Shown piece after piece: positions 27,232 to 37,817 of a stretch of 37,817 bases of DNA (its first letter is position 1; each line of letters begins with the position of its first letter). Location: positions 1 to 37,817 of the forward strand of contig CAJWEV010000018.1 in assembly GCA_913031575.1 (NCBI GenBank), read 5' to 3'. Position numbers and translations under genes: made by a program. The DNA is from an uncultured Halieaceae bacterium (GTDB taxonomy: Bacteria > Pseudomonadota > Gammaproteobacteria > Pseudomonadales > Halieaceae). Below the pieces are notes generated by a model. It was given only the letters and a program-made list of their open reading frames with translations, did no database searches and had not been told where the DNA came from.

Positions 27232-28530
27232 ATGTCGAGCATTAGCAAGGTCGCATTTATAGGGCTGGGCGCCATGGGCTACCCAATGGCGGGCCATCTT
27301 AAGCGGAGTGGCTTAGACGTCTGTGTCTATAACCGAACCGAGACCAAGGCATTTGCCTGGGCGGACGAGCACGATGGCCTCTCTGCACCCACCCCTGCAC
27401 AAGCGGCTGTGGATGCCCAAATTGTCTTCCTCTGCGTAGGCAATGATAGCGATGTAAGATCGGTTACGGTCGAGGCTGAAGGTGTTTTGTCCACCATGAC
27501 GGCTGGCACACTTCTGGTTGACCACACCACCACGTCCAAAGCGCTGGCGGAGGAGTTACACGCTGCCTGCGGTGAGTTGGGCATCTCGTTTATCGACGCC
27601 CCCGTATCCGGTGGGCAAGCAGGGGCGGAAAACGGCGTGCTTACCGTCATGGCTGGTGGAGAGGCGTCAGCCTTCGAGGTAATGGAACCCGTCATCGCAG
27701 CTTACGCGAAACACACACAGCTAATGGGCGATGTGGGCAGCGGTCAAGTCACCAAGATGGTAAATCAGCTTTGTATCGCCGGAGTCCTTGGGGGTCTATC
27801 TGAGGCATTCCACTTTGCCGAGTGTGCGGGTCTGGATATCGATGAGGTGACGCGAGCCATTCAGGGCGGTGCCGCTCAGTCGTGGCAAATGAATAACCGT
27901 GCAGGGACCATCGCTCAACGGAAATATGACTTCGGGTTTGCCATTGACTGGATGCGTAAGGATCTGGGTTTTGCTCTCGATGTAGCTCAGCAGCTGGGGC
28001 TCCACCTCCCTATTGCCGCTATGGTTGATGACCATTACGCCAATGTTCAGTCCAGCGGCGGCGGTCGGTGGGATACCTCCGGGCTCATCGAGCAGATCCG
28101 AGGGCGAACTGAGAAGACGCAAGCGGCAAAGACAGCGGAGCGGGTGACGCACTCAGGGGGCTGCCATTGCGGAAGTGTTCAATGGACTGTTGAAGCCCCT
28201 AGGATTCTAGACACACACACCTGTAACTGCTCGATTTGTGAGATCCATCACTACCAACATCTATTGGTTCCTGAGAGCCGATTCAAACTGATAAAGGGTG
28301 AAGAATCGCTCTCGCTCTACACCTTCGGTAGTCAAAAAGCGAAGCATTATTTTTGTAAGTACTGTGGCGTTAAATCCTTCTATGTCCCACGATCGAACCC
28401 GGACGGTGTCAGTGTTAATGCCCGCTGCCTTGAGATGGACACCGTGGAGGTCATCTACGACAAGCCGTTTGATGGTCGAAACTGGGAAAAGAACGCGGGC
28501 TCACTGGCCCACCTTTCGAAAGAAAGTTAA
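27232..28530 (+). CDS. Fusion: 3-hydroxyisobutyrate dehydrogenase-family enzyme plus GFA/CENP-V zinc domain
   Basis: Residues 1 to about 295 are a beta-hydroxyacid dehydrogenase. They have the dinucleotide site FIGLGAMGYPMAGHL (G11, G13, G16), the substrate loop DAPVSGGQAGAENG, and the catalytic Lys K175 in SGQVTKMVNQ. Such enzymes oxidise 3-hydroxyisobutyrate, tartronate or 3-hydroxypropionate, or reduce the matching semialdehydes. Residues about 305-432 form a complete GFA domain. C311, C313, C375 and C378 are the probable structural zinc site, and C331, C333 and C336 the second site. The reading frame is continuous across the join, and a GTG codon at 28144 may be a relic of a separate start. 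A good AGGA precedes the ATG. A cysteine-cluster gene follows after three bases. Confidence 0.9.
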   Translation: MSSISKVAFIGLGAMGYPMAGHLKRSGLDVCVYNRTETKAFAWADEHDGLSAPTPAQAAVDAQIVFLCVGNDSDVRSVTVEAEGVLSTMTAGTLLVDHTTTSKALAEELHAACGELGISFIDAPVSGGQAGAENGVLTVMAGGEASAFEVMEPVIAAYAKHTQLMGDVGSGQVTKMVNQLCIAGVLGGLSEAFHFAECAGLDIDEVTRAIQGGAAQSWQMNNRAGTIAQRKYDFGFAIDWMRKDLGFALDVAQQLGLHLPIAAMVDDHYANVQSSGGGRWDTSGLIEQIRGRTEKTQAAKTAERVTHSGGCHCGSVQWTVEAPRILDTHTCNCSICEIHHYQHLLVPESRFKLIKGEESLSLYTFGSQKAKHYFCKYCGVKSFYVPRSNPDGVSVNARCLEMDTVEVIYDKPFDGRNWEKNAGSLAHLSKES

Positions 28531-29002: not shown

Positions 29003-29464
29003 CTAAGCCGCTGGTGGAGAGTAGTAGCCTAACAGTCGCGGGTAGCCGCTCTTGGTTCTTCGACTGAAGCGAGAATCCCACGCATCCCACACCGTGCCTT
29101 TACGGATGGCCATCACATGCCGGGGTATGACCGCTATAAAGTGGCCGTCTCGCGGGATATCAGGAAGGTATGCATTTTTGGTGATAGTCAGCTCCCAACC
29201 TTTTCCTGTGAGGTAAAGATAGTGAACCGGCGTCATCACACCATCCGCGATTGAAGGATACAGACCGCCGGTCATCTTTTTTTGCAGATAGGACAGGTCC
29301 TGCCTAACGTGATTATAAGACTGACCAGTTATCAGGCATATCGCACGGACGACGCAGTCCGCGCGGCCACGAAACCCAGCTTCTTCTCGCCCCCCATCGT
29401 GTTGTACAAATTCCAACACTGTGCGCGCCCCACCCTGTGTATTAGTGTTATTTCGAAATATCAT
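29003..29464 (-). CDS. Small hypothetical protein, possible papain-like fold
   Basis: I do not recognise a named family. The 153-residue product has the pattern DCVVRAICLITGQSY (C37), then GHFIAVIPRHVMAI (H116), then a Gly and WDAWDS (D127/D130). This Cys-His-Asp order resembles small phage and bacterial proteins with a papain/C39-like fold; a peptidase function is inference. The frame is open up to 29710, but that part overlaps the dehydratase gene antisense and looks non-coding. I use the ATG at 29464; a GTG at 29422 with GGTGGGG upstream is also plausible. It diverges from the dehydratase over only 28 bases. Confidence 0.68.
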   Translation of the reverse strand: MIFRNNTNTQGGARTVLEFVQHDGGREEAGFRGRADCVVRAICLITGQSYNHVRQDLSYLQKKMTGGLYPSIADGVMTPVHYLYLTGKGWELTITKNAYLPDIPRDGHFIAVIPRHVMAIRKGTVWDAWDSRFSRRTKSGYPRLLGYYSPPAA

Positions 29465-29492
29465 GGTGGCTGGATCAATTTGAGGTGCTCTT

Positions 29493-30467
29493 GTGACAGT
29501 AAATTTTACCGATATTGAGCGCGCCCATGAGCGGATCGCACACCTCATCACTAAAACACCGCTGTTGAACTCGCCTCGACTAGATGCGATTGCGGGTCGG
29601 CGTCTCTGGCTAAAAGCAGAGCCCTTGCAAGTCACGGGTAGTTTTAAATTTCGCGGCGCTTGCAGCGCAATCAGTGCGCTGTCGAGTGAATCTTTAAGCA
29701 GGGGGGTCATCGCTTACTCTTCGGGGAACCATGCGCAAGGGATAGCCCTCGCTGCAAAGCTGTTCAAGACCCGCGCAACGATCATCATGCCTCATGACGC
29801 ACCTGCGAACAAAGTTGCAAATACACGCACTTATGGTGCTGACATAGTTCACTATGAACGAGGCGTCGAGAGTCGCGAAGACATCGGAGCGGACCTCGCC
29901 CAGAGGCAAGGTCTAACACTCGTAAAACCCTATGATGATCCTGCGGTCATTGCCGGTCAGGGCACCGTGGGTCTTGAACTCGCCGAACAAATATCCGAGC
30001 GGCAGCTCAATGTATCTGCAATCTTATGTTGCTGCGGAGGTGGGGGTTTAAGTGCGGGAATTGCAACGGCTATGGCAGTAACGAATCCCGCAGTGACACT
30101 TCACACGGCTGAGCCTCTCGGATTCGATGACACCGCTCGCTCCCTGTCTCTGGGAAAGCGGGTGGCCAACAAAACGGAGCAAGGGTCGATTTGTGATGCT
30201 ATCGTGACACCGACACCGGGTGAGATTACTTTCCCGATCCTCAAGGCTCTGGCAGGACGAGGATTCACCGTCAGTGATGATCAAACTCTGCGCGCGATGC
30301 GCTGCGCTTTTGATACCTTGAAACTGGTGATCGAACCCGGCGGCGCCGTCGCACTTGCGGCCGCCTTATTCGCTGAAAATCTGCCCTCATCTGATGATCT
30401 TGTTGTCATCGTTTCTGGCGGCAATGTAGATGAGAAAATTTTTGCTAGAGCGCTAACTATTAGCTGA
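29493..30467 (+). CDS. PLP-dependent threonine/serine dehydratase-like enzyme
   Basis: This fold-type II pyridoxal-phosphate enzyme has 324 residues and no C-terminal ACT regulatory domain, so it resembles catabolic threonine/serine ammonia-lyase or serine racemase rather than biosynthetic IlvA. The PLP Lys is K52 in VTGSFKFRGA. SSGNHAQGIALAAK, DDPAVIAGQGTVGLE and the phosphate-binding CCCGGGGLSAGI are clear. EPGGAVALAA and VIVSGGNVD close the fold. The start is GTG at 29493, preceded by GAGGT. If it deaminates threonine, the 2-oxobutyrate could also lead to propionyl-CoA, the product of the next gene; that link is speculative. Confidence 0.88.
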   Translation: MTVNFTDIERAHERIAHLITKTPLLNSPRLDAIAGRRLWLKAEPLQVTGSFKFRGACSAISALSSESLSRGVIAYSSGNHAQGIALAAKLFKTRATIIMPHDAPANKVANTRTYGADIVHYERGVESREDIGADLAQRQGLTLVKPYDDPAVIAGQGTVGLELAEQISERQLNVSAILCCCGGGGLSAGIATAMAVTNPAVTLHTAEPLGFDDTARSLSLGKRVANKTEQGSICDAIVTPTPGEITFPILKALAGRGFTVSDDQTLRAMRCAFDTLKLVIEPGGAVALAAALFAENLPSSDDLVVIVSGGNVDEKIFARALTIS

Positions 30468-30676
30468 GTAAATACCAGCAATTACCCCTGTGACAAATTA
30501 CCAAATTCGGTGATCTGCGCGATCTCATCCGCCGTATCTTCAGTGTAATCAAGCGGTGGGGAGAACCGGTGCGCCGGAGCTTGATTCGAGAGTGTAGGTG
30601 CGGATACAAGGACAACCGTATCGGCGCCATCTCAACTAGCCCCCTCCGCTGGCGATTTTTCGAGAGGGAGAAAACC
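30468..30676 (+). promoter_or_regulatory. Leader region of the pcs-mcr operon
   Basis: These 209 bases separate the dehydratase stop from the pcs start and probably hold the operon promoter. A weak candidate is TTGATT (30581) with GATACA 16 bases on (30603); it fits the consensus poorly. CGCCA at 30625-30629 can pair with TGGCG at 30650-30654, followed by A and five T, a weak terminator-like element. CCCTC at 30642-30646 can instead pair with GAGGG at 30664-30668, which is the ribosome-binding site. The two pairings cannot easily coexist. These are hand-drawn structures with short stems. Confidence 0.3.
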
Positions 30677-33600
30677 ATGAGCGATGACCGTACCTGGGGC
30701 GTACTTGCGTCTCAGTCAGATGAGGATGCGCTTAGAAATCACATCACTGAATCAGCGGATGAATTTCACGCCGCAGTAGCGGCGCGCGAGATCCATTGGC
30801 AGCACCCTTCCTGCGGTGCGTGGCTCGCCCGCGAAAACGAAGATGGCTGGATCGGCTGGGATTCCCGCGGTAAATCTACTGGCATAGAGGGTGACTGCTG
30901 GACGCCTTGGAAGTCTGTTTTAGACGAGTCTGCAGCGCCCTACTACAGGTGGTTTACCGGTGGTCAAACAAACGCTTGCTTCAATCTTGTCGATCGCCAT
31001 CTACTCTCAGACAGGGCCGAAAAAACGGCGATTATTTTTGAGGGTGATCGGTGGGATCCTTCCAAAAATAATGGAAGAGGCGGTCCGGTTACCGAGCAGC
31101 ATTTCACCTACCGCCAGGTCTTTGAAGAAATCATTGCGCGCATGCAGGTACTCCGAGATTTGGGCTTGACCAAGGGAGATCGCATTGCCTTCAACCTTCC
31201 CAATATCCCAGAGCAAATTTTTTACATGCTGGCGGCGCAGCGCATGGGTGTGGTCTATACACCTGTATTTGGCGGTTTCTCGGCAAAAACCCTGTCAGAT
31301 CGTATCCACGACGCGGGCGCAAAGCTCGTAATAACCGCTGATGGTGGCTACCGAAACGCGGAAGTTGTCGGCTACAAAGGCACTTACGCCGACCCGGCAC
31401 TGGATAATTACATCCCTCGAGAGACCGCGCTCGCCACATTGAAAGCAGTCTTAGCAACGTATGACCTCGGTGCTTTGGCTGACACGCTGTACAGCGACGT
31501 TAGTGACGCGCTGGCAAGTGAAATAACGCTTGAAAGATCGGACGTCATGCGCGAACTCGGCGCTTCATTGGCGAGCCAGAACTTGATTGCACCGGAAATG
31601 GCCGCAGAGTTGCGCACTGCAGTAGCCCGACAGCTCGCGGACGCTAAGCACAACGTAGAGAATGTGATTGTTGTCGAGTACACCGGTCAAGAGGTGGTAG
31701 AACATGCACGAGATCGCTGGTCGAGCGATCTTGTTGCCTCCGCGAAAGCGACGATCGCAAAGCATCTCGGAGTCTCAGATTTTAAGGCTCTGGGTTCGGA
31801 AGAGCCAGCGGCCTTTTGGGCCAAGCTCAATGCAGTCCTGCCTGTCGAGAGCGTCGACTCAAACTTTCCCTTGTTCATCATTTACACATCTGGATCAACC
31901 GGTAAACCCAAGGGCGTAGTTCACACTCATGGCAGCTGGCTGAGTGGCGTTAGCCACACTATGCGCATGGTCTTCAACGCGACTGAAGATGACACGCTTT
32001 ACGTCATTGGTGATCCGGGCTGGATTACGGGTCAAAGCTATTTGATTGCTGCGCCCTTGGTACAAGGCATGACTACAGTGATTGCTGAGGGCTCTCCTCT
32101 CTTTCCTCATGCAGGCCGTTTCTCATCGATTATCGAACGCTACAAGGTCACTCTCTTTAAAGCGGGCTCAACCTTCCTTAAAGCGGTAATGACAGACCCG
32201 GCAAGCGCTCGGGAAATGGCCGACTTCGACATGTCCACGCTGCGTGCCGGCACCTTCTGCGCTGAGCCAGTTTCACCGGCCGTTCAGCAATTTGCTATGG
32301 ACAATATTTGCAAGCACTACATCAACTCATACTGGGCGACTGAGCACGGCGGCATCGTATTCAGTTGCCCGTGGGGCGGTTACAAGTCACTCGCAGCTGA
32401 TGCAAAGACATGGCCACTCCCCTGGATTCAAGCTGAAGTACGTGTAGCTGGAGCGACAGCTGATGATGGCAGGGTGACGACATGGCGCACCGCGGAATCG
32501 GGCGAAAAAGGCGAGCTGGTCATTACACAGCCCTATCCTTATTTGGCACGCACTCTGTGGGGCGATGCAGAAAACCTATTTGAAGATAGCTGGCGCGGAG
32601 ATATTGAGCGCTTTAGTGAGGTCTACTTCAATCGGTGGAACGGTGAACTTACCTACACGCAAGGAGATTATGCGCGTCAGCACGATGATGGAGCATACAC
32701 ACTGCACGGTCGTTCTGACGACGTGATAAACGTTTCAGGTCACCGAATTGGTACCGAAGAAATCGAAGGCGCCATCTTACGCGACAAGACACTTCGTGAA
32801 GACTCCCCCGTGGGTAACGTTGTGGTCGTGGGTGCGCCACACGATGAAAAGGGCGAGACACCGGTAGCATTTTTGGTAGCAGCTGCGGGCCGAAAGCTCT
32901 CAGATGATGACCTAGCGCGATTGCAGTCTTTGGTCCGATCTGAGAAAGGCGCTACCGCCGTGCCTTCCGATTTTCTCGTTGTATCGGCATTCCCGGAAAC
33001 ACGCTCCGGCAAGTACATGCGTCGAACACTTCGCTCTATCCTGCTCGATCAACCTCTAGGTGACATCTCCACACTCAAGAATCCGGAGTCAGTTGAGGAG
33101 ATCCGGACAGCCGTAGCACAATGGAAGGACTTCGGTCGTTTGACTGAAGCGAGACGCGTCGTTCAGACGTGGCGCTACCTGCGTGTCGAAACCCACGAGG
33201 TCGCGCCCGGTTACTTGGTGGCACTGGTTGTGATCAGCAGCCCGCCAGTGAACGCACTGAGCGAGCGAACACTAGACGAGCTTCACACTGCACTGACACA
33301 GCTAGCTCACCAGGACGACCTATCGGCCATGATTGTGACTGGTGCCCGAAACACCTTTGTTGCGGGTGCGGACGTCAAAGAGTTACTCAAAATTGGTGAA
33401 AAAGGCGACTTGGAGTCCGCTCAAACACTGCCAAATGCGGCGCAGACGGCTTTCGCAACACTTGAAAACCTTGATATCCCGATTATTGCGGCCGTTAACG
33501 GTCCCGCCCTAGGTGGCGGTAACGAATTGGTACTTGCCTGTTCACACGTTATTGCAGCTAAGCACGCCGAATTCGGACAACCAGAAATCAATCTGAACCT

Positions 33601-36088
33601 GCTACCTGGTTACGGTGGTACTCAGCGTCTGACTCGTAAGCTCTTTGACGCAGATGGTGTTGACGGTGCAGCTCAGGCACTACGTATGATGCTCGACGGT
33701 CGTACAATCGACGCCGATACGGCACTTGAGATTGGCCTCATTGATGACATCGTGACCACTGAAGGACTCTCAACCGTCGAAGCAGCCATGGCGGCTCTCC
33801 GAGACCATTTTGCCGGTGGCGACGCCCTGAAAGTCACTATGGCGCGGCGTAAAAAGCTGAAAGACCAACGAGAGCAGTCCCTTGCTATCGACGAATCACT
33901 GCTGAATCACCCGGACGTAGCCCCAGCGCTACAGCAGATTCGCGCGAGTGGCCGAACCAAGCCGGTCAACTTCATCATTGACGCAATGCTCACCGGTGCA
34001 CGGGATGGTCAGGCAGCGGGTCTGCGACGCGAAGCCGACTTATTTGCGCAAGGTGTCTGCGACCCTGAATGCGGTCCGGATGGCATCTCTGCATTCCTGG
34101 AAAAGCGCAGCGCACCACTGCCACCTAAACCAAAGGCCGTGCAACCTGATGCCTCTGCGGAGGAGCGTGCAGTGCTGATCGAAGATGGCAAGTTACTTCC
34201 TATGGGAGCAAGCTTCTTCCCCGGCATTACACCAATACCCGAGTACCAGCTTGGCTACGGTGTGATGCGATCACACGAGGACGGCAGACCGCTGCATGGT
34301 GATCCCGCGGTTGCGGAAAAAGAGCTGGTCTTGCCTACGCCGACACCGGGTCCCAATGAAGCGTTAGTCTATATTTTAGCTTCTGAAATGAACTTCAATG
34401 ATATCTGGGCGATCACAGGCATCCCTGTCTCTCCTTTTGATGCGCGTGATGCCGATGTACAAGTAACTGGCTCGGGTGGAGTAGGTATGGTGGCCCAGTT
34501 AGGTCAAGATCTCGTCCGTGAGGGTCGTCTGTCCGTAGGCGATATTGTTAGTATCTACTCGGGTCAGAGTGAATTAATGGCGCCTGATCAGGGATTGGAT
34601 CCCATGGCGGCGGATTTCCGTATCCAGGGCTATGAGCGAAACGACGGTAGTCACGCTCAGTTCCTGACAGTCCAAGGACCGCAGTTGCACGCCAAATTGC
34701 CGGGCCTAAGTATTGAAGAAGCGGGTTCGTACGGCCTAACAATGGGTACGATTCATCGCGCGCTATACAACACGCTTGCAATCGAGCCAGGAAAGCGCTT
34801 GTTTGTCGAAGGTGCGTCAACAGGCACCGGCTATGACTGTCTGCGAAGCGCACTGTCCTCCAGCTGTGCCGCGTTGGGTATGGTCTCTAGTGACAGCCGA
34901 GGCGAGCGTGTCGAGGCGGTTGGCGGGCATGCAATAAATCGAAAAGACGATCGATGGGTTGATATCTTCACCGCAGTTCCTGATGACCCTAGCGAGTGGG
35001 ACGCATGGGAAGCAGCAGGCGAGACATTTGTCGCCGAGGCTCAGAAGAAAGTGGGCGGACAAATCGACTACTCGGTCTCTCACGCCGGTGAGACCGCCTT
35101 CCCCCGATCATTCCAGCTACTAGGTGCAGGCGGTGTGCTCACCTTTTACGGTGCCTCGTCTGGATATCGTTTCACCTTCATGGGTAAAGCCGGCGCCTCT
35201 ACGCCGGCCGCGCAGTTCTCCAAAGCTGGATTACGAGCGGGTCAGTCATTGCTTGTCGTCTATGGTCCCGGTGCCGAGGACGGTATCGTCGACCCGGTTG
35301 CTATTGAAGCTATCGAAGTCGGTTGTCAGCGTGGTGCACAGGTAGCTGTTCTGGTAGATACCGTCTCTCAGCGCGAGTTTGTTACTTCCCTCGGATTTGG
35401 CGCACAGATGAAAGGTGTGGTCAGTATCGAGGAAATTGAGCGTCGTCTCGGTGATGAGTTCGATCCACCCGGACCATTCCAACAGATGCCAAATCCCTTC
35501 ACGGAATCTGCGGCATTTAAGGAATCTGTTCGGGCCTTCTCTGACCGAACACTCAAGCCTATTGGCTCAGCGATTGCGCCCTTGTTGCGCAATACGCTTG
35601 ACAAGCGCGGCCTCCCCGACGTCGTATTTGAACGCGCAGGACGTGACGGTCTGGCACTTGCCACATCGCTGGTTAAACCAAATGTGGGCAAAATTGTCTA
35701 TTCAGAGGACCTTAAGGGCTCACGCTTCAGCTTCTACGCTCCTCAAGTATGGATGCGCCAGCGTCGAATTTTAATGCCGACCGCAGAAATTCGCGGCACG
35801 CACCTCAACACTTCACGCGAATTTGCAGAGATGCAAGAGCGTATTGCCGCAGGTCATATCAATATTCTTCCTCCAACAATTATCTCCATGGAAGACGTGC
35901 CAGAGGCACACCAAGCTATGTGGGAAAACCGGCATGCAGGCGCCAACTACGTCGCCATGCACGCGTTACCAAGGACTAATCTAAAGTCACGGGACGAGTT
36001 GTACCGCGCTTGGGCTATCCGCGACGCAATGGAGCGCGGCGAGACACTTACGAAGGTTGAAACAGGATCAGCAGGAGCACTCCGATGA
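30677..36088 (+). CDS. pcs: Trifunctional propionyl-CoA synthase (3-hydroxypropionate to propionyl-CoA)
   Basis: One 1803-residue chain holds three enzymes, as in Chloroflexus Pcs (about 1820). Residues 1 to about 830 are an AMP-forming acyl-CoA synthetase, with YTSGSTGKPKG at 403-413, RSDDVINVSGHRIGTEEIE and the adenylation Lys K779 in SGKYMRR. They activate 3-hydroxypropionate. Residues about 835-1095 are an enoyl-CoA hydratase with both catalytic Glu, E950 and E970, dehydrating to acrylyl-CoA. Residues about 1190-1803 are a zinc-independent MDR enoyl-CoA reductase of the crotonyl-CoA carboxylase/reductase type, with the nucleotide motif EGASTGTG near 1380. I chose the ATG at 30677 because GAGGGAG lies seven bases upstream; the frame is open from 30569. 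The stop overlaps the mcr start by four bases. Confidence 0.94.
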   Translation: MSDDRTWGVLASQSDEDALRNHITESADEFHAAVAAREIHWQHPSCGAWLARENEDGWIGWDSRGKSTGIEGDCWTPWKSVLDESAAPYYRWFTGGQTNACFNLVDRHLLSDRAEKTAIIFEGDRWDPSKNNGRGGPVTEQHFTYRQVFEEIIARMQVLRDLGLTKGDRIAFNLPNIPEQIFYMLAAQRMGVVYTPVFGGFSAKTLSDRIHDAGAKLVITADGGYRNAEVVGYKGTYADPALDNYIPRETALATLKAVLATYDLGALADTLYSDVSDALASEITLERSDVMRELGASLASQNLIAPEMAAELRTAVARQLADAKHNVENVIVVEYTGQEVVEHARDRWSSDLVASAKATIAKHLGVSDFKALGSEEPAAFWAKLNAVLPVESVDSNFPLFIIYTSGSTGKPKGVVHTHGSWLSGVSHTMRMVFNATEDDTLYVIGDPGWITGQSYLIAAPLVQGMTTVIAEGSPLFPHAGRFSSIIERYKVTLFKAGSTFLKAVMTDPASAREMADFDMSTLRAGTFCAEPVSPAVQQFAMDNICKHYINSYWATEHGGIVFSCPWGGYKSLAADAKTWPLPWIQAEVRVAGATADDGRVTTWRTAESGEKGELVITQPYPYLARTLWGDAENLFEDSWRGDIERFSEVYFNRWNGELTYTQGDYARQHDDGAYTLHGRSDDVINVSGHRIGTEEIEGAILRDKTLREDSPVGNVVVVGAPHDEKGETPVAFLVAAAGRKLSDDDLARLQSLVRSEKGATAVPSDFLVVSAFPETRSGKYMRRTLRSILLDQPLGDISTLKNPESVEEIRTAVAQWKDFGRLTEARRVVQTWRYLRVETHEVAPGYLVALVVISSPPVNALSERTLDELHTALTQLAHQDDLSAMIVTGARNTFVAGADVKELLKIGEKGDLESAQTLPNAAQTAFATLENLDIPIIAAVNGPALGGGNELVLACSHVIAAKHAEFGQPEINLNLLPGYGGTQRLTRKLFDADGVDGAAQALRMMLDGRTIDADTALEIGLIDDIVTTEGLSTVEAAMAALRDHFAGGDALKVTMARRKKLKDQREQSLAIDESLLNHPDVAPALQQIRASGRTKPVNFIIDAMLTGARDGQAAGLRREADLFAQGVCDPECGPDGISAFLEKRSAPLPPKPKAVQPDASAEERAVLIEDGKLLPMGASFFPGITPIPEYQLGYGVMRSHEDGRPLHGDPAVAEKELVLPTPTPGPNEALVYILASEMNFNDIWAITGIPVSPFDARDADVQVTGSGGVGMVAQLGQDLVREGRLSVGDIVSIYSGQSELMAPDQGLDPMAADFRIQGYERNDGSHAQFLTVQGPQLHAKLPGLSIEEAGSYGLTMGTIHRALYNTLAIEPGKRLFVEGASTGTGYDCLRSALSSSCAALGMVSSDSRGERVEAVGGHAINRKDDRWVDIFTAVPDDPSEWDAWEAAGETFVAEAQKKVGGQIDYSVSHAGETAFPRSFQLLGAGGVLTFYGASSGYRFTFMGKAGASTPAAQFSKAGLRAGQSLLVVYGPGAEDGIVDPVAIEAIEVGCQRGAQVAVLVDTVSQREFVTSLGFGAQMKGVVSIEEIERRLGDEFDPPGPFQQMPNPFTESAAFKESVRAFSDRTLKPIGSAIAPLLRNTLDKRGLPDVVFERAGRDGLALATSLVKPNVGKIVYSEDLKGSRFSFYAPQVWMRQRRILMPTAEIRGTHLNTSREFAEMQERIAAGHINILPPTIISMEDVPEAHQAMWENRHAGANYVAMHALPRTNLKSRDELYRAWAIRDAMERGETLTKVETGSAGALR

Positions 36089-37817
36089 ATGATATGAGCG
36101 ATATCCCCCAGGACCTGCTTACGCAGTCCATCGCTGGGCGTCGACTCGACAACAAATGCATCATCTTGACCGGTGCCGCGGGCTCTATTGGCAGCTACAT
36201 CACCAGGCATTTACTGCGCGAAGGCGCAAGGGTCATGCTGACGGGTCGTGATCAGGGCAAACTTAATGACTTCATGAGCGACTTAGTCGATGAAGGCTTT
36301 GAGGAGACCTTCATGGTTAGCGCGACTGGTGATTGCGCTGATCCGGAAGTCTGCCGACAGATTGTGGCAAAAACAATTGCCGCCTTTGGCCCAATCGATG
36401 TGTTGGTCAATAACGCGGGTGCTGCAGGTCCTAAGTTCACGCTTCGCGACATCCCATTTACAGAAGCGGAGCAACGCGCGGCTGATTCCGATCAGACGAT
36501 GTTCGACTCGGCGATGAATCTGTTGGGTGCGCCTTGGAATATGGCGCGTGCAGCGGCTCCGCATATGTCTGCAGGTGGCAGCATCATTAACGTGTCAACC
36601 ATTTTCTCGAGAACGCATTACTACGGCCGTATTCCGTACGTGGTACCGAAGTCGGGACTTAATGCTCTGGGCAAGGGTCTCGCGCTCGAGCTGGGCGAGA
36701 AGCAAGGTATCCGAGTAAATACCCTCTTCCCTGGCCCCATCGAGTCAGAGCGCATTGAGAGCGTATTCGCGCGCATGGATGAGCTTCAGGGCGTCGAGCC
36801 AGGCAGTACGGGTAAAGAGTTCCGTGACCTGATGATTACAACCCGAACATCGGACGGCGGACTGGAGTATAAGTACCCTACACCTACAGACGTAGCATCA
36901 GGCATTGTCTGGCTTGCATCTGACGAGTCGTCCGCCCTCTCAGGGCACCACATCGAGGTCACTAATGGCATGCAGGTACCTGCGCAAAGCCGTTCTCAGC
37001 TTGTATCGTGGCCCGACAAGCGACTCGAGGATCTCTCGGGACAGGTTGTACTTATTCTTGGCGGCGATGACTACCAAGAAGCAGTTACATTCGCGGAACG
37101 CCAGATTCAAAGTGGTGCCCGAGTCATGCTGGCGTTCCGAAATCTAAAAACGGTCGGTCACGCCCGTTCACTGCTGCAAGCACGAAATCTGGACGACGTC
37201 CAGCTATCACACCTGGACCCCTTGCGGAGAGAATCGGTGGATCGCTCGATGCAGTTGATGTCGGATCATTTTGGCCGTTTGGACGGCGTAATTCTTCTGC
37301 CACAAAAGCCAAATGGTGAGTATGGGTATTCCCTGTGTACTGCAAACGATGAAGACGTTGCAAACTTCGTGCGGGACGAAGTGGTAGCACCTGTGGCCTT
37401 TGCATCGAGCTTCGCTCGCAACATGGATCGCCTATTTGCAGAAGACGAGCCACCAGCAATCGTCTACGTAACAAATCCGTCTGATCGTCACGGCAATTTG
37501 ATGAACGAAATCATCCGCGCCTCAGTCGAAGCGTTGATTCGCGGCTGGCGTCATGAAGACGAGACATTGGCGAACACAGGTGATCTCACGTGGGCTGTTC
37601 AGCCCAACCAGATGGTACGCTACGACACGGAAGACGAGGAGGCGTTGACCTTCGCTGCCGATTGGGCAGCGACACTGACGAATCGGGTCCGTAAGATGGA
37701 TTCGATCAATTTGTGGTTGCCACGCAGCATCAAGCGTTCAACGGGCAAGAGCGCAATGCCCTCCTCGATCTCGCGCGTACTGCCGGGATTGCATAAAGGT
37801 CGCACGGCCGTAATTAC
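36085..37817 (+). CDS. mcr: Malonyl-CoA reductase, N-terminal half (cut by window end)
   Basis: The frame is open for 577 codons to the right edge and aligns by eye with the first half of Chloroflexus bifunctional malonyl-CoA reductase (about 1220 residues). The first SDR domain has TGAAGSIG at residues 29-36, VNNAGAAGP, Ser171 in INVSTIFSR and the catalytic Y185/K189 in YVVPK. NTLFPGPIESERI is nearly as in Chloroflexus. In that enzyme this half reduces malonate semialdehyde to 3-hydroxypropionate, and the C-terminal half, outside this window, makes the semialdehyde from malonyl-CoA. A second, degenerate Rossmann repeat (VVLILGGDDYQEAV) begins near residue 320. The ATG overlaps the pcs stop (ATGA), so the two enzymes are made together. 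Confidence 0.93.
   Translation, partial: MNDMSDIPQDLLTQSIAGRRLDNKCIILTGAAGSIGSYITRHLLREGARVMLTGRDQGKLNDFMSDLVDEGFEETFMVSATGDCADPEVCRQIVAKTIAAFGPIDVLVNNAGAAGPKFTLRDIPFTEAEQRAADSDQTMFDSAMNLLGAPWNMARAAAPHMSAGGSIINVSTIFSRTHYYGRIPYVVPKSGLNALGKGLALELGEKQGIRVNTLFPGPIESERIESVFARMDELQGVEPGSTGKEFRDLMITTRTSDGGLEYKYPTPTDVASGIVWLASDESSALSGHHIEVTNGMQVPAQSRSQLVSWPDKRLEDLSGQVVLILGGDDYQEAVTFAERQIQSGARVMLAFRNLKTVGHARSLLQARNLDDVQLSHLDPLRRESVDRSMQLMSDHFGRLDGVILLPQKPNGEYGYSLCTANDEDVANFVRDEVVAPVAFASSFARNMDRLFAEDEPPAIVYVTNPSDRHGNLMNEIIRASVEALIRGWRHEDETLANTGDLTWAVQPNQMVRYDTEDEEALTFAADWAATLTNRVRKMDSINLWLPRSIKRSTGKSAMPSSISRVLPGLHKGRTAVI

What the first reader, a model, noticed from the sequence alone, without database searches (positions are those of the whole stretch)
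30677..37817. Propionyl-CoA synthase and malonyl-CoA reductase as a coupled two-gene operon in a gammaproteobacterial background
Pcs and Mcr are the signature enzymes of the reductive arm of the 3-hydroxypropionate bicycle, known best from Chloroflexus. Here they overlap by four bases (ATGA) in a genome with standard gammaproteobacterial gene order. Together they would turn malonyl-CoA into propionyl-CoA using NADPH and ATP. No malyl-CoA lyase, mesaconyl-CoA enzyme or propionyl-CoA carboxylase is in the window. The module may therefore serve as a reductant sink, a propionyl-CoA source or a 3-hydroxypropionate/acrylate assimilation route rather than carbon fixation. From memory, homologues have been noted in strain HTCC2080 and Erythrobacter NAP1, so presence alone may not be new; its role is unsettled.
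Basis: partly seen in the sequence, partly recalled or inferred. Interest (0 to 1): 0.85.

Follow-up and report, generated by a model that had tools for sequence, protein, structure and literature searches.

The report
Light-linked CO2-assimilating operon in marine bacterium
A marine light-using bacterium carries a two-gene operon whose enzymes should turn malonyl-CoA into propionyl-CoA, and because such genes turn up mostly in bacteria with a light-harvesting reaction centre, it probably lets them build extra CO2 into biomass using light energy; the enzymes themselves are known, the tight link to light use is the interesting part.

Summary
Confirmed. The window is contig C18 of a 79%-complete Luminiphilus (Halieaceae) genome. 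pcs (30677-36088) is intact; mcr starts in an ATGA overlap and is cut only by the contig end. Its second half opens contig C4, 82 codons unseen between. The genome has pufL/M. Pcs follows the type-II reaction centre: Halieaceae at least 90% complete: 22 both, 1 Pcs only, 3 puf only, 52 neither; 397 Sphingomonadaceae: 38/3/38/318; of 40 other Pcs genomes 34 have it. Relatives carry a propionyl-CoA-to-succinyl-CoA operon; elsewhere the pair sits beside accA, a fused carboxylase or DabA. Best reading: an open acetyl-CoA + 2 HCO3- to succinyl-CoA arm, driven by light-derived ATP and storing reductant. The published HP/HB reading of Luminiphilus does not explain the module generally: outside that genus the 4-hydroxybutyryl-CoA dehydratase gene does not follow it, though family-wide the two are associated. 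The bicycle's second cycle could not be tested (my probe failed its control). Earlier papers already place 3HP genes in some phototrophs, so the kind is known; the breadth and selectivity of the link look under-described.

The parts
30677..36088 (+). pcs, propionyl-CoA synthase, 1803 aa, intact three-domain fusion
   Evidence: 1836 bits to 6eqo; 56 of 140 Halieaceae genomes have a match at E <= 1e-100 (some partial, two divergent)
31091..32533 (+). AMP-binding (3-hydroxypropionate-CoA ligase) core domain of Pcs
   Evidence: PF00501, 7.1e-60, residues 175-655 of P0001 (P0001 starts at 30569)
33218..33910 (+). Crotonase (3-hydroxypropionyl-CoA dehydratase) domain of Pcs
   Evidence: PF00378, 3.5e-38, residues 884-1114 of P0001; Glu950 and Glu970 (numbering of the 1803-aa protein) invariant in the 8 sequences
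34295..35179 (+). Acrylyl-CoA reductase (crotonyl-CoA carboxylase/reductase-like) region of Pcs
   Evidence: TIGR01751, 5.4e-54, 183 bits (below its cut-off of 379), residues 1243-1537 of P0001; continuous alignment to 6eqo
36085..36088 (+). ATGA overlap of pcs stop and mcr start
   Evidence: the same 4-bp overlap in ten Halieaceae loci (L042, L044, L047, L048, L049, L050, L052, L053, L054, L056)
36085..37815 (+). mcr, N-terminal 577 codons of malonyl-CoA reductase, cut by the contig end; the C-half is on G000:C4:1-1674 (L009)

Best explanation
pcs-mcr is a probably translationally coupled operon that runs the reductive arm of the 3-hydroxypropionate route as an open pathway in an aerobic anoxygenic phototroph. 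Acetyl-CoA carboxylase makes malonyl-CoA (inferred). Mcr reduces it with 2 NADPH to 3-hydroxypropionate, and Pcs takes that with ATP and 1 NADPH to propionyl-CoA (from family membership and recalled biochemistry, not assayed). Propionyl-CoA carboxylase, epimerase and B12 mutase carry it to succinyl-CoA (operon seen in relatives). Net, by recalled stoichiometry: acetyl-CoA + 2 HCO3- + 3 NADPH + about 4 ATP equivalents to succinyl-CoA. In the light, photophosphorylation pays the ATP, and the arm refills the TCA cycle, adds CO2 carbon to acetyl-CoA-yielding food and stores surplus reductant. It is CO2 co-assimilation, not proven autotrophy.
For: Pcs full length; Mcr seen but for 82 codons. Own genome has pufL and pufM above NCBIfam cut-offs. 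Pcs and reaction centre co-occur in Halieaceae (>=90% complete: 22/1/3/52, p 3.5e-15) and, separately, in Sphingomonadaceae (38/3/38/318, p 3e-28). Mcr: 19 of 19 Mcr+ Halieaceae >=90% complete are puf+, against 6 of 59 Mcr-. Of 40 Pcs+ genomes that I took as outside Halieaceae, 34 are puf+: Chloroflexota 10/10, Gemmatimonadota 5/5, Pseudomonadota 18/21, Myxococcota 1/2, Bacillota 0/2 (groups from the record titles). Flanks change between genera while the pair stays. Pcs and Mcr trees show the same two main groups, which suggests joint transfer. Input: accA beside mcr in 4 of 5 sphingomonad loci with room and in a Roseiflexus; fused acyl-CoA carboxylase before pcs in two Rhodopila and a Phenylobacterium; DabA beside the set in two Rhodopila and a Sphingomonas (clusters; Pfam on one or two members each). 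Carboxylase subunits, epimerase, mutase and MeaB in a row in G058, the same row in sister G098. Published: in the phototroph Porphyrobacter ULC335 the 3HP genes are up by day (PMC10674011, passages).
Against: Own genome gave no mutase hit (79% complete, sister has it). It has an isocitrate lyase, so the arm need not be its only anaplerotic route. No PpsR-like TGT-N12-ACA enrichment upstream of pcs: 3 of 91 loci against 4.6 by shuffling. Exceptions: G012 (99% complete, one contig) has Pcs and puf but no Mcr; G086, G037, G038 (>=90% complete) have puf without Pcs; half of the puf+ Sphingomonadaceae (38 of 76) lack Pcs; 9 of 28 Mcr+ Halieaceae under 90% complete lack puf where incompleteness alone would give about 5; within Luminiphilus alone the Pcs-puf association is not significant (37/10/6/4, p 0.24). 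Fisher tests ignore shared ancestry. The 40 outside genomes come from the best 80 of 179 relatives, so more distant Pcs were not examined. The dehydratase of the rival HP/HB cycle is also associated with Pcs over the whole family (see rival 1).
Confidence: 0.6

Rival explanations
1. [quoted passage not shown]
For: A true relative of 4-hydroxybutyryl-CoA dehydratase exists in Luminiphilus G058: 727 bits to 6vjr and 557 to 1u8v. HpaB_N (E <= 1e-10) is in 36 of 57 genomes of the genus and goes with Pcs within the genus (33/14/3/7, p 0.028), over all 140 genomes (36/20/17/67, p 1.8e-7) and over those >=90% complete (15/8/12/43, p 5e-4). The paper reports all enzymes in 8 Luminiphilus MAGs (section read).
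Against: Outside Luminiphilus at >=90% completeness the gene is unlinked to Pcs: 1 of 7 Pcs+ against 11 of 54 Pcs- (p 1.0). Six genomes >=90% complete with Pcs, Mcr and puf have no HpaB_N hit: G112 (one contig), G069, G011, G013, G137, G138. Own genome has no hit (79% complete). In G058 the gene is 1.3 Mb from pcs, beside an FAD monooxygenase and an acyl-CoA carboxyltransferase. The same paper says this dehydratase serves other pathways in Bacteria.
Confidence: 0.12
2. A complete 3-hydroxypropionate bicycle, with the glyoxylate-assimilating second cycle elsewhere in the genome.
For: In Rhodopila L124 genes that look like mch, mct and mcl lie just beyond mcr, and a betaproteobacterial locus L121 has relatives of mcl and mch just before pcs (best model hits below curated cut-offs). 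PMC9802188 reports bicycle genes in photosynthetic Burkholderiales MAGs and in Gemmatimonadota (section 7).
Against: None of the Halieaceae loci clustered has a relative of those L124/L121 genes, and I saw none by eye among the ORFs of the window and L009. The MC_hydratase search in Halieaceae mostly gave half-length hits, but that model also missed the Chloroflexus genomes, so it says nothing. One paper reports no complete canonical CO2 fixation pathway in six Halieaceae strains (PMC10100682, section 12 read). The rest of the own genome was not searched for these genes.
Confidence: 0.12
3. 3-hydroxypropionate, acrylate or DMSP-carbon assimilation: Pcs takes up external 3-hydroxypropionate and Mcr acts as a side or reverse enzyme.
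For: Luminiphilus is named among predicted DMSP degraders (PMC13310141, passages). G012 keeps Pcs without Mcr. A separate set, Pcs beside Fe-alcohol dehydrogenase without an adjacent Mcr, would fit such a role (L045, L129, L133, L134).
Against: Mcr is beside Pcs in 43 of 45 loci of this Pcs type, and its substrate is malonyl-CoA. There is no evident reason for such a role to follow the photosynthetic reaction centre; the four Fe-ADH loci lie in genomes without a hit for it.
Confidence: 0.1
4. Propionyl-CoA is made as a building block (odd-chain lipids, polyhydroxyalkanoate), or the genes are passengers of phototrophy without a light-related role.
For: pcs-mcr and pufLM lie on different contigs in the own genome and some 0.2 Mb apart in G058; no shared regulator site was found.
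Against: Association in two families and among several phyla, with different gene neighbours, argues for a functional tie.
Confidence: 0.06

Closest known systems
Reductive arm of the 3-hydroxypropionate bicycle of Chloroflexus aurantiacus (mcr Caur_2614, pcs Caur_0613; PMC3150298, passage)
   Same: Same two signature enzymes, same domain order
   Different: In C. aurantiacus the two genes are apart, and no Mcr lies in the flanks of three Chloroflexus-type loci (L105, L106, L109); in Roseiflexus L126 and Chloroflexaceae L114 mcr precedes pcs; here pcs precedes mcr with a 4-bp overlap, in an aerobic marine gammaproteobacterium whose Pcs and Mcr form a separate clade
3HP genes of the aerobic phototrophs Erythrobacter NAP1 and Porphyrobacter ULC335 (PMC10674011)
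   Same: Phototroph, key 3HP enzymes, no full fixation pathway reported, CO2 co-assimilation proposed
   Different: Sphingomonad Pcs is about 50% identical and in another group; accA follows mcr in 4 of 5 sphingomonad loci with room, in none of the Halieaceae loci clustered
HP/HB cycle proposed for Luminiphilus (PMC9802188)
   Same: Same genus, same propionyl-CoA-forming arm, bacteriochlorophyll genes noted there
   Different: The dehydratase that defines the second half is not linked to the pair outside the genus and is missing from six well-covered genomes with the pair and pufLM
Partial bicycle of Ca. Kentron (PMC6593406)
   Same: Incomplete bicycle in Gammaproteobacteria, assigned to assimilation
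   Different: Mirror image: Kentron lacks Mcr and Pcs and has most of the rest (passages)
Pcs beside iron alcohol dehydrogenase (Halieaceae G025, Cellvibrionales L129, Sulfobacillus L133, Bacillota L134)
   Same: Pcs relative, 46-49% identical
   Different: No adjacent Mcr, no reaction-centre hit, other branches of the tree

Membership tests
Propionyl-CoA synthase (Pcs) | Single chain with AMP-ligase, crotonase and MDR enoyl-CoA reductase domains in that order, about 1800 aa | tested here: met
Propionyl-CoA synthase (Pcs) | Conserved catalytic motifs (roles recalled): ligase lysine, two crotonase glutamates | tested here: met
   K779, E950 and E970 invariant in 8 sequences; aligned to 6eqo
Propionyl-CoA synthase (Pcs) | Converts 3-hydroxypropionate to propionyl-CoA | not testable with these tools
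   Needs an enzyme assay
Malonyl-CoA reductase (bacterial, bifunctional SDR type) | About 1220 aa of SDR-like units matching solved Mcr end to end (architecture recalled) | tested here: met
   N-half in window, C-half on C4, 82 codons unseen between contigs; complete 1216 aa in sister G098
Malonyl-CoA reductase (bacterial, bifunctional SDR type) | YxxxK active-site motif in both halves (motif recalled) | tested here: met
   YVVPK in the N-half, YAVSK in the C-half
3-hydroxypropionate bicycle (complete) | Mcr and Pcs | tested here: met
   As above
3-hydroxypropionate bicycle (complete) | Propionyl-CoA carboxylase, epimerase, methylmalonyl-CoA mutase | tested here: inconclusive
   Mutase not found in own 79%-complete genome, found in 132 of 140 family genomes; row of genes in G058 and sister G098
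3-hydroxypropionate bicycle (complete) | Mcl, Mch, Mct, Meh second cycle | tested here: inconclusive
   PF19315 probe failed its positive control in Chloroflexus genomes G152, G153, G156
HP/HB cycle | 4-hydroxybutyryl-CoA dehydratase in this genome | tested here: inconclusive
   No HpaB_N hit in the own genome, which is 79% complete; sister G098 has a partial one at a contig end
HP/HB cycle | Dehydratase accompanies pcs-mcr wherever the pair is found in the family | tested here: not met
   Absent from G112, G069, G011, G013, G137, G138 (>=90% complete, pair and pufLM present); unlinked outside Luminiphilus
Calvin cycle phototroph | RuBisCO and phosphoribulokinase | not tested
   PMC9802188 says the genus lacks them; not searched here
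Anoxygenic phototroph with type-II reaction centre | pufL and pufM | tested here: met
   L166 (G000:C8): TIGR01157 429 bits and TIGR01115 495 bits, above cut-offs

The most novel reading that the evidence does not exclude
pcs-mcr is a horizontally moving add-on to type-II reaction-centre phototrophy in several phyla: a light-powered, RuBisCO-free CO2-fixing electron sink (acetyl-CoA to succinyl-CoA) that gives aerobic anoxygenic phototrophs the redox-balancing system they were said to lack (PMC3666943), with two parallel clades, one of them (marine Gammaproteobacteria, Longimicrobiales, Myxococcota) little described.
Probability: 0.4. Interest if true: 0.75.

Novelty: new member of a known kind. 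Interest (0 to 1): 0.55.

Why it matters
Halieaceae such as Luminiphilus are described as abundant in coastal seawater and as photo- or chemoheterotrophs (abstract and passages of PMC10100682). If the arm runs in light, half of the carbon of the succinyl-CoA that it makes would come from bicarbonate, so their inorganic carbon uptake is underestimated and pcs/mcr marks it. It turns an open question, how aerobic phototrophs without a CO2-based redox valve dispose of excess reductant, into a gene-deletion and 13C test in cultured strains that carry the pair (Pseudohaliea rubra DSM 19751, locus L097; Chromatocurvus halotolerans DSM 23344, locus L099), and it calls for a second look at the published HP/HB assignment.

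Tried and rejected
Tried without result. (1) Isocitrate lyase as a counterpart of Pcs: the hits lie between 1e-23 and the chosen limit of 1e-20, so absences mean little; the own protein is an isocitrate lyase relative along most of its length (819 bits to 6g1o), which ended the idea that the arm simply replaces the glyoxylate shunt. (2) MC_hydratase PF19315 as a probe for the second cycle: no hit in Chloroflexus, dropped as evidence. (3) PpsR-like site upstream of pcs: not above chance. (4) NCBIfam names for Pcs and Mcr: only sub-cut-off matches to single domains among the 25 shown for each. (5) Papers: the search with HTCC2080 gave nothing; the 2011 co-assimilation paper is not held.

Rejected: disrupted or half Mcr; chance ORFs.

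Rows chosen or dropped. The association tables were typed in from the listings; completeness. The 40 'outside' genomes are 40 of the 80 loci, chosen by title and identity; the other 40 are titled Halieaceae or Luminiphilus or are 69% or more identical; L120, counted as outside, falls among Halieaceae in the tree. The upstream scan left out loci with under 250 bases upstream and duplicates; its adjacency counts are loci, some from one genome fetched by two tools. The Pcs tree used 65 hand-chosen loci; the Mcr tree 38 of 41 asked for (3 too short), without L117 and L122, whose mcr matches in pieces. Fe-ADH cluster 2 has a fifth member, in L091, on the other strand beyond mcr, in a puf+ genome.


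Full report
What is there. The window is the whole of contig C18 of a 2.14-Mb, 88-contig, 79%-complete genome. Same-genus genome G087 matches, by contig number and coordinates, a record titled Luminiphilus sp. (L061), so the genus is Luminiphilus, family Halieaceae. Pcs runs from 30677 to 36088 (1803 aa); the mechanical ORF is 36 codons longer at the 5' end. Its best solved relative is 6eqo (1836 bits, residues 48-1826 of the longer ORF), and the domains come in the order ligase, crotonase, reductase. mcr begins at 36085 in an ATGA overlap and is open to the contig end.

The missing half. The own-genome search with the N-half also hit the first bases of contig C4. C4:1-1674 encodes 557 aa that match residues 672-1229 of chain 8hi4. 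In sister genome G098 the complete Mcr has 1216 aa; the two own pieces cover 1-577 and 660-1216 at 98% identity, leaving 82 codons unseen between contigs. The genes left of pcs in the window and right of mcr on C4 are in the same order in G098. So the operon is whole as far as can be seen.

Conservation. Pcs (E <= 1e-100) is in 56 of 140 Halieaceae and Mcr (E <= 1e-70) in 47 of 140, 46 of them Pcs+. Between genera the flanking genes change and the pair stays; ten Halieaceae loci show the same 4-bp overlap. Of loci with a complete Pcs end and at least 3 kb beyond it, 43 of 45 of the window's type (over 60% identity) carry Mcr, the exceptions being L043 and L120. Of the 25 more distant ones 14 do: 13 downstream, mostly with a short gap and no 4-bp overlap, and Roseiflexus L126 upstream. 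Chloroflexaceae L114 also has Mcr before Pcs; three Chloroflexus-type loci have no Mcr in the flanks.

Trees. The quick Pcs tree (65 rows, midpoint root) has one clade with support 100 that holds Halieaceae, Woeseiaceae, Lysobacterales, Longimicrobiales (Gemmatimonadota) and Myxococcota with the window's protein, and a second part with Chloroflexota, Alphaproteobacteria, a betaproteobacterium, Gemmatimonadaceae, some Gammaproteobacteria and the Fe-ADH group. The Mcr tree (38 rows) splits the same way. Phyla are mixed in both, which suggests transfer of the pair. Some placements rest on long branches (L116, L045), as the program warned. MAG taxonomy is as deposited.

Link to light. The own genome has pufL and pufM on contig C8, above curated cut-offs, beside ORFs that look to me like bacteriochlorophyll genes (not tested). 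Tables are both / Pcs only / puf only / neither. Halieaceae: 43/13/9/75 for all 140 and 22/1/3/52 for the 78 at least 90% complete (p 3.5e-15). Outside Luminiphilus at that completeness: 6/1/2/52 (p 3e-6). Within Luminiphilus, where most genomes have both, the association is not significant (37/10/6/4, p 0.24). Sphingomonadaceae, 397 sampled: 38/3/38/318 (p 3e-28), so Pcs is nearly confined to phototrophs there but half of the phototrophs lack it. Of 40 Pcs+ genomes that I took as outside Halieaceae, 34 have the reaction centre. Mcr is stricter: 19 of 19 Mcr+ Halieaceae at least 90% complete are puf+, against 6 of 59 Mcr-. These p values ignore shared ancestry; repetition across families and phyla carries the weight.

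Exceptions. G025 (99% complete) has a divergent Pcs, no Mcr hit and no puf; its Pcs sits beside an iron alcohol dehydrogenase, as do those of L129, L133 and L134, all three puf-. These look like another use of Pcs. A fifth member of that dehydrogenase cluster lies beyond mcr, on the other strand, in puf+ L091. G012 has Pcs and puf but no Mcr; G086, G037 and G038 have puf without Pcs. L092 has the pair without a reaction-centre hit; L116 has a distant Mcr and L120 none in the flank, both puf-; L135 is puf+ without Mcr in the flank. Among 28 Mcr+ Halieaceae under 90% complete, 9 lack puf, about 5 expected from incompleteness, so some loss of phototrophy with the pair kept is likely.

Pathway context. 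In Luminiphilus G058 a carboxyltransferase, a 924-aa biotin-carboxylase-type protein, methylmalonyl-CoA epimerase, methylmalonyl-CoA mutase and MeaB lie in a row; the last three pass curated cut-offs, the two carboxylase subunits are named by family only. In sister G098 the same row of ORFs is seen; I scanned its carboxyltransferase, biotin-carboxylase-type protein and mutase. Mutase is in 132 of 140 family genomes; the own genome gave no hit, most simply from incompleteness. Elsewhere the pair's neighbours point to carbon input: accA beside mcr in L110, L117, L125, L128 (not in L119) and in Roseiflexus L126 (one cluster, Pfam run on L110 and L126); a fused biotin carboxylase/carboxyltransferase before pcs in L101, L124 and L132 (Pfam run on L101); DabA (inorganic carbon transporter family) in L101, L124 and, fused to a DabB-like part, L117 (Pfam run on L101 and L117). 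Rhodopila L124 also has genes resembling mch, mct and mcl (best model hits below cut-offs). The Halieaceae loci have no member of these clusters.

Rival cycles. A survey (PMC9802188, section 10 read) assigns a full HP/HB cycle to eight Luminiphilus MAGs. The dehydratase family is really there (6vjr 727 bits, 1u8v 557 bits), and over the whole family it is associated with Pcs (36/20/17/67, p 1.8e-7; at >=90% completeness 15/8/12/43, p 5e-4), as also within the genus (p 0.028). But outside the genus it is unlinked (1 of 7 Pcs+ against 11 of 54 Pcs-), and it is absent from six genomes of at least 90% completeness that have the pair and pufLM: G112, G069, G011, G013, G137, G138. So HP/HB cannot be the general role. 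It stays possible in some Luminiphilus. The second cycle of the bicycle was not testable: my probe failed in Chloroflexus itself. The own genome also has isocitrate lyase.

Literature. PMC3666943 (passages) says that aerobic phototrophs of this clade appear to lack a redox-balancing system based on CO2 or nitrogen fixation; PMC10100682 (section 12 read) finds no canonical pathway complete in six Halieaceae. PMC10674011 (passages) reports 3HP key genes in Porphyrobacter ULC335 and NAP1, proposes CO2 co-assimilation and finds the genes up by day. PMC11089705 (passage) says phototrophs of Microcystis blooms appear to use the 3HP bicycle, but calls it incomplete. PMC9802188 (section 7 read) reports bicycle genes in two Burkholderiales families with predicted photosynthesis and in Gemmatimonadota. 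I found no paper stating the cross-phylum link of pcs-mcr with the reaction centre in searches of an open-licence library; of the 32 papers, 30 were listed and I opened four, passages only. Subscription papers are not covered.

Verdict. The best explanation is an open, light-supported acetyl-CoA-to-succinyl-CoA carboxylation arm (shown: genes, gene order, reaction-centre genes, association; inferred: co-transcription, flux, direction, light dependence). The enzymes are a known kind and the idea has been voiced for sphingomonad phototrophs; what is added is the strength and breadth of the link, a second clade, and a case against the general HP/HB reading.

Noticed in passing
27232-28530 (+): 3-hydroxyisobutyrate-dehydrogenase-type protein (PF03446, PF14833) fused to a C-terminal GFA domain (PF04828); found in loci of close relatives only among those compared.
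   Followed up: partly
29003-29710 (-): 235-aa ORF with no Pfam family, overlapping the start of the PLP enzyme gene upstream of pcs; shorter relatives in three close loci.
   Followed up: no
L124 (Rhodopila MAG) 3-23572: Cluster of DabB-like, DabA, fused biotin carboxylase/carboxyltransferase, pcs, mcr and genes resembling mch, mct and mcl: looks like much of a 3HP bicycle with bicarbonate uptake in one place.
   Followed up: partly
L045 14617-15828, L129 1829-3004, L133 8776-9918, L134: Pcs beside an iron alcohol dehydrogenase without an adjacent Mcr, in genomes without a reaction-centre hit: a possible second use of Pcs.
   Followed up: partly
L161 5273-10438 (G058): 4-hydroxybutyryl-CoA dehydratase/vinylacetyl-CoA isomerase relative next to an FAD monooxygenase and an acyl-CoA carboxyltransferase; reads like a catabolic cluster.
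   Followed up: partly
L043 (G012): 99%-complete Halieaceae genome with Pcs and pufLM but no Mcr hit.
   Followed up: no
L087, L090, L102: Pcs-Mcr pairs in MAGs labelled Myxococcota and Longimicrobiales that also have a reaction centre, in the same Pcs clade as the marine Gammaproteobacteria; MAG labels and binning not checked.
   Followed up: no
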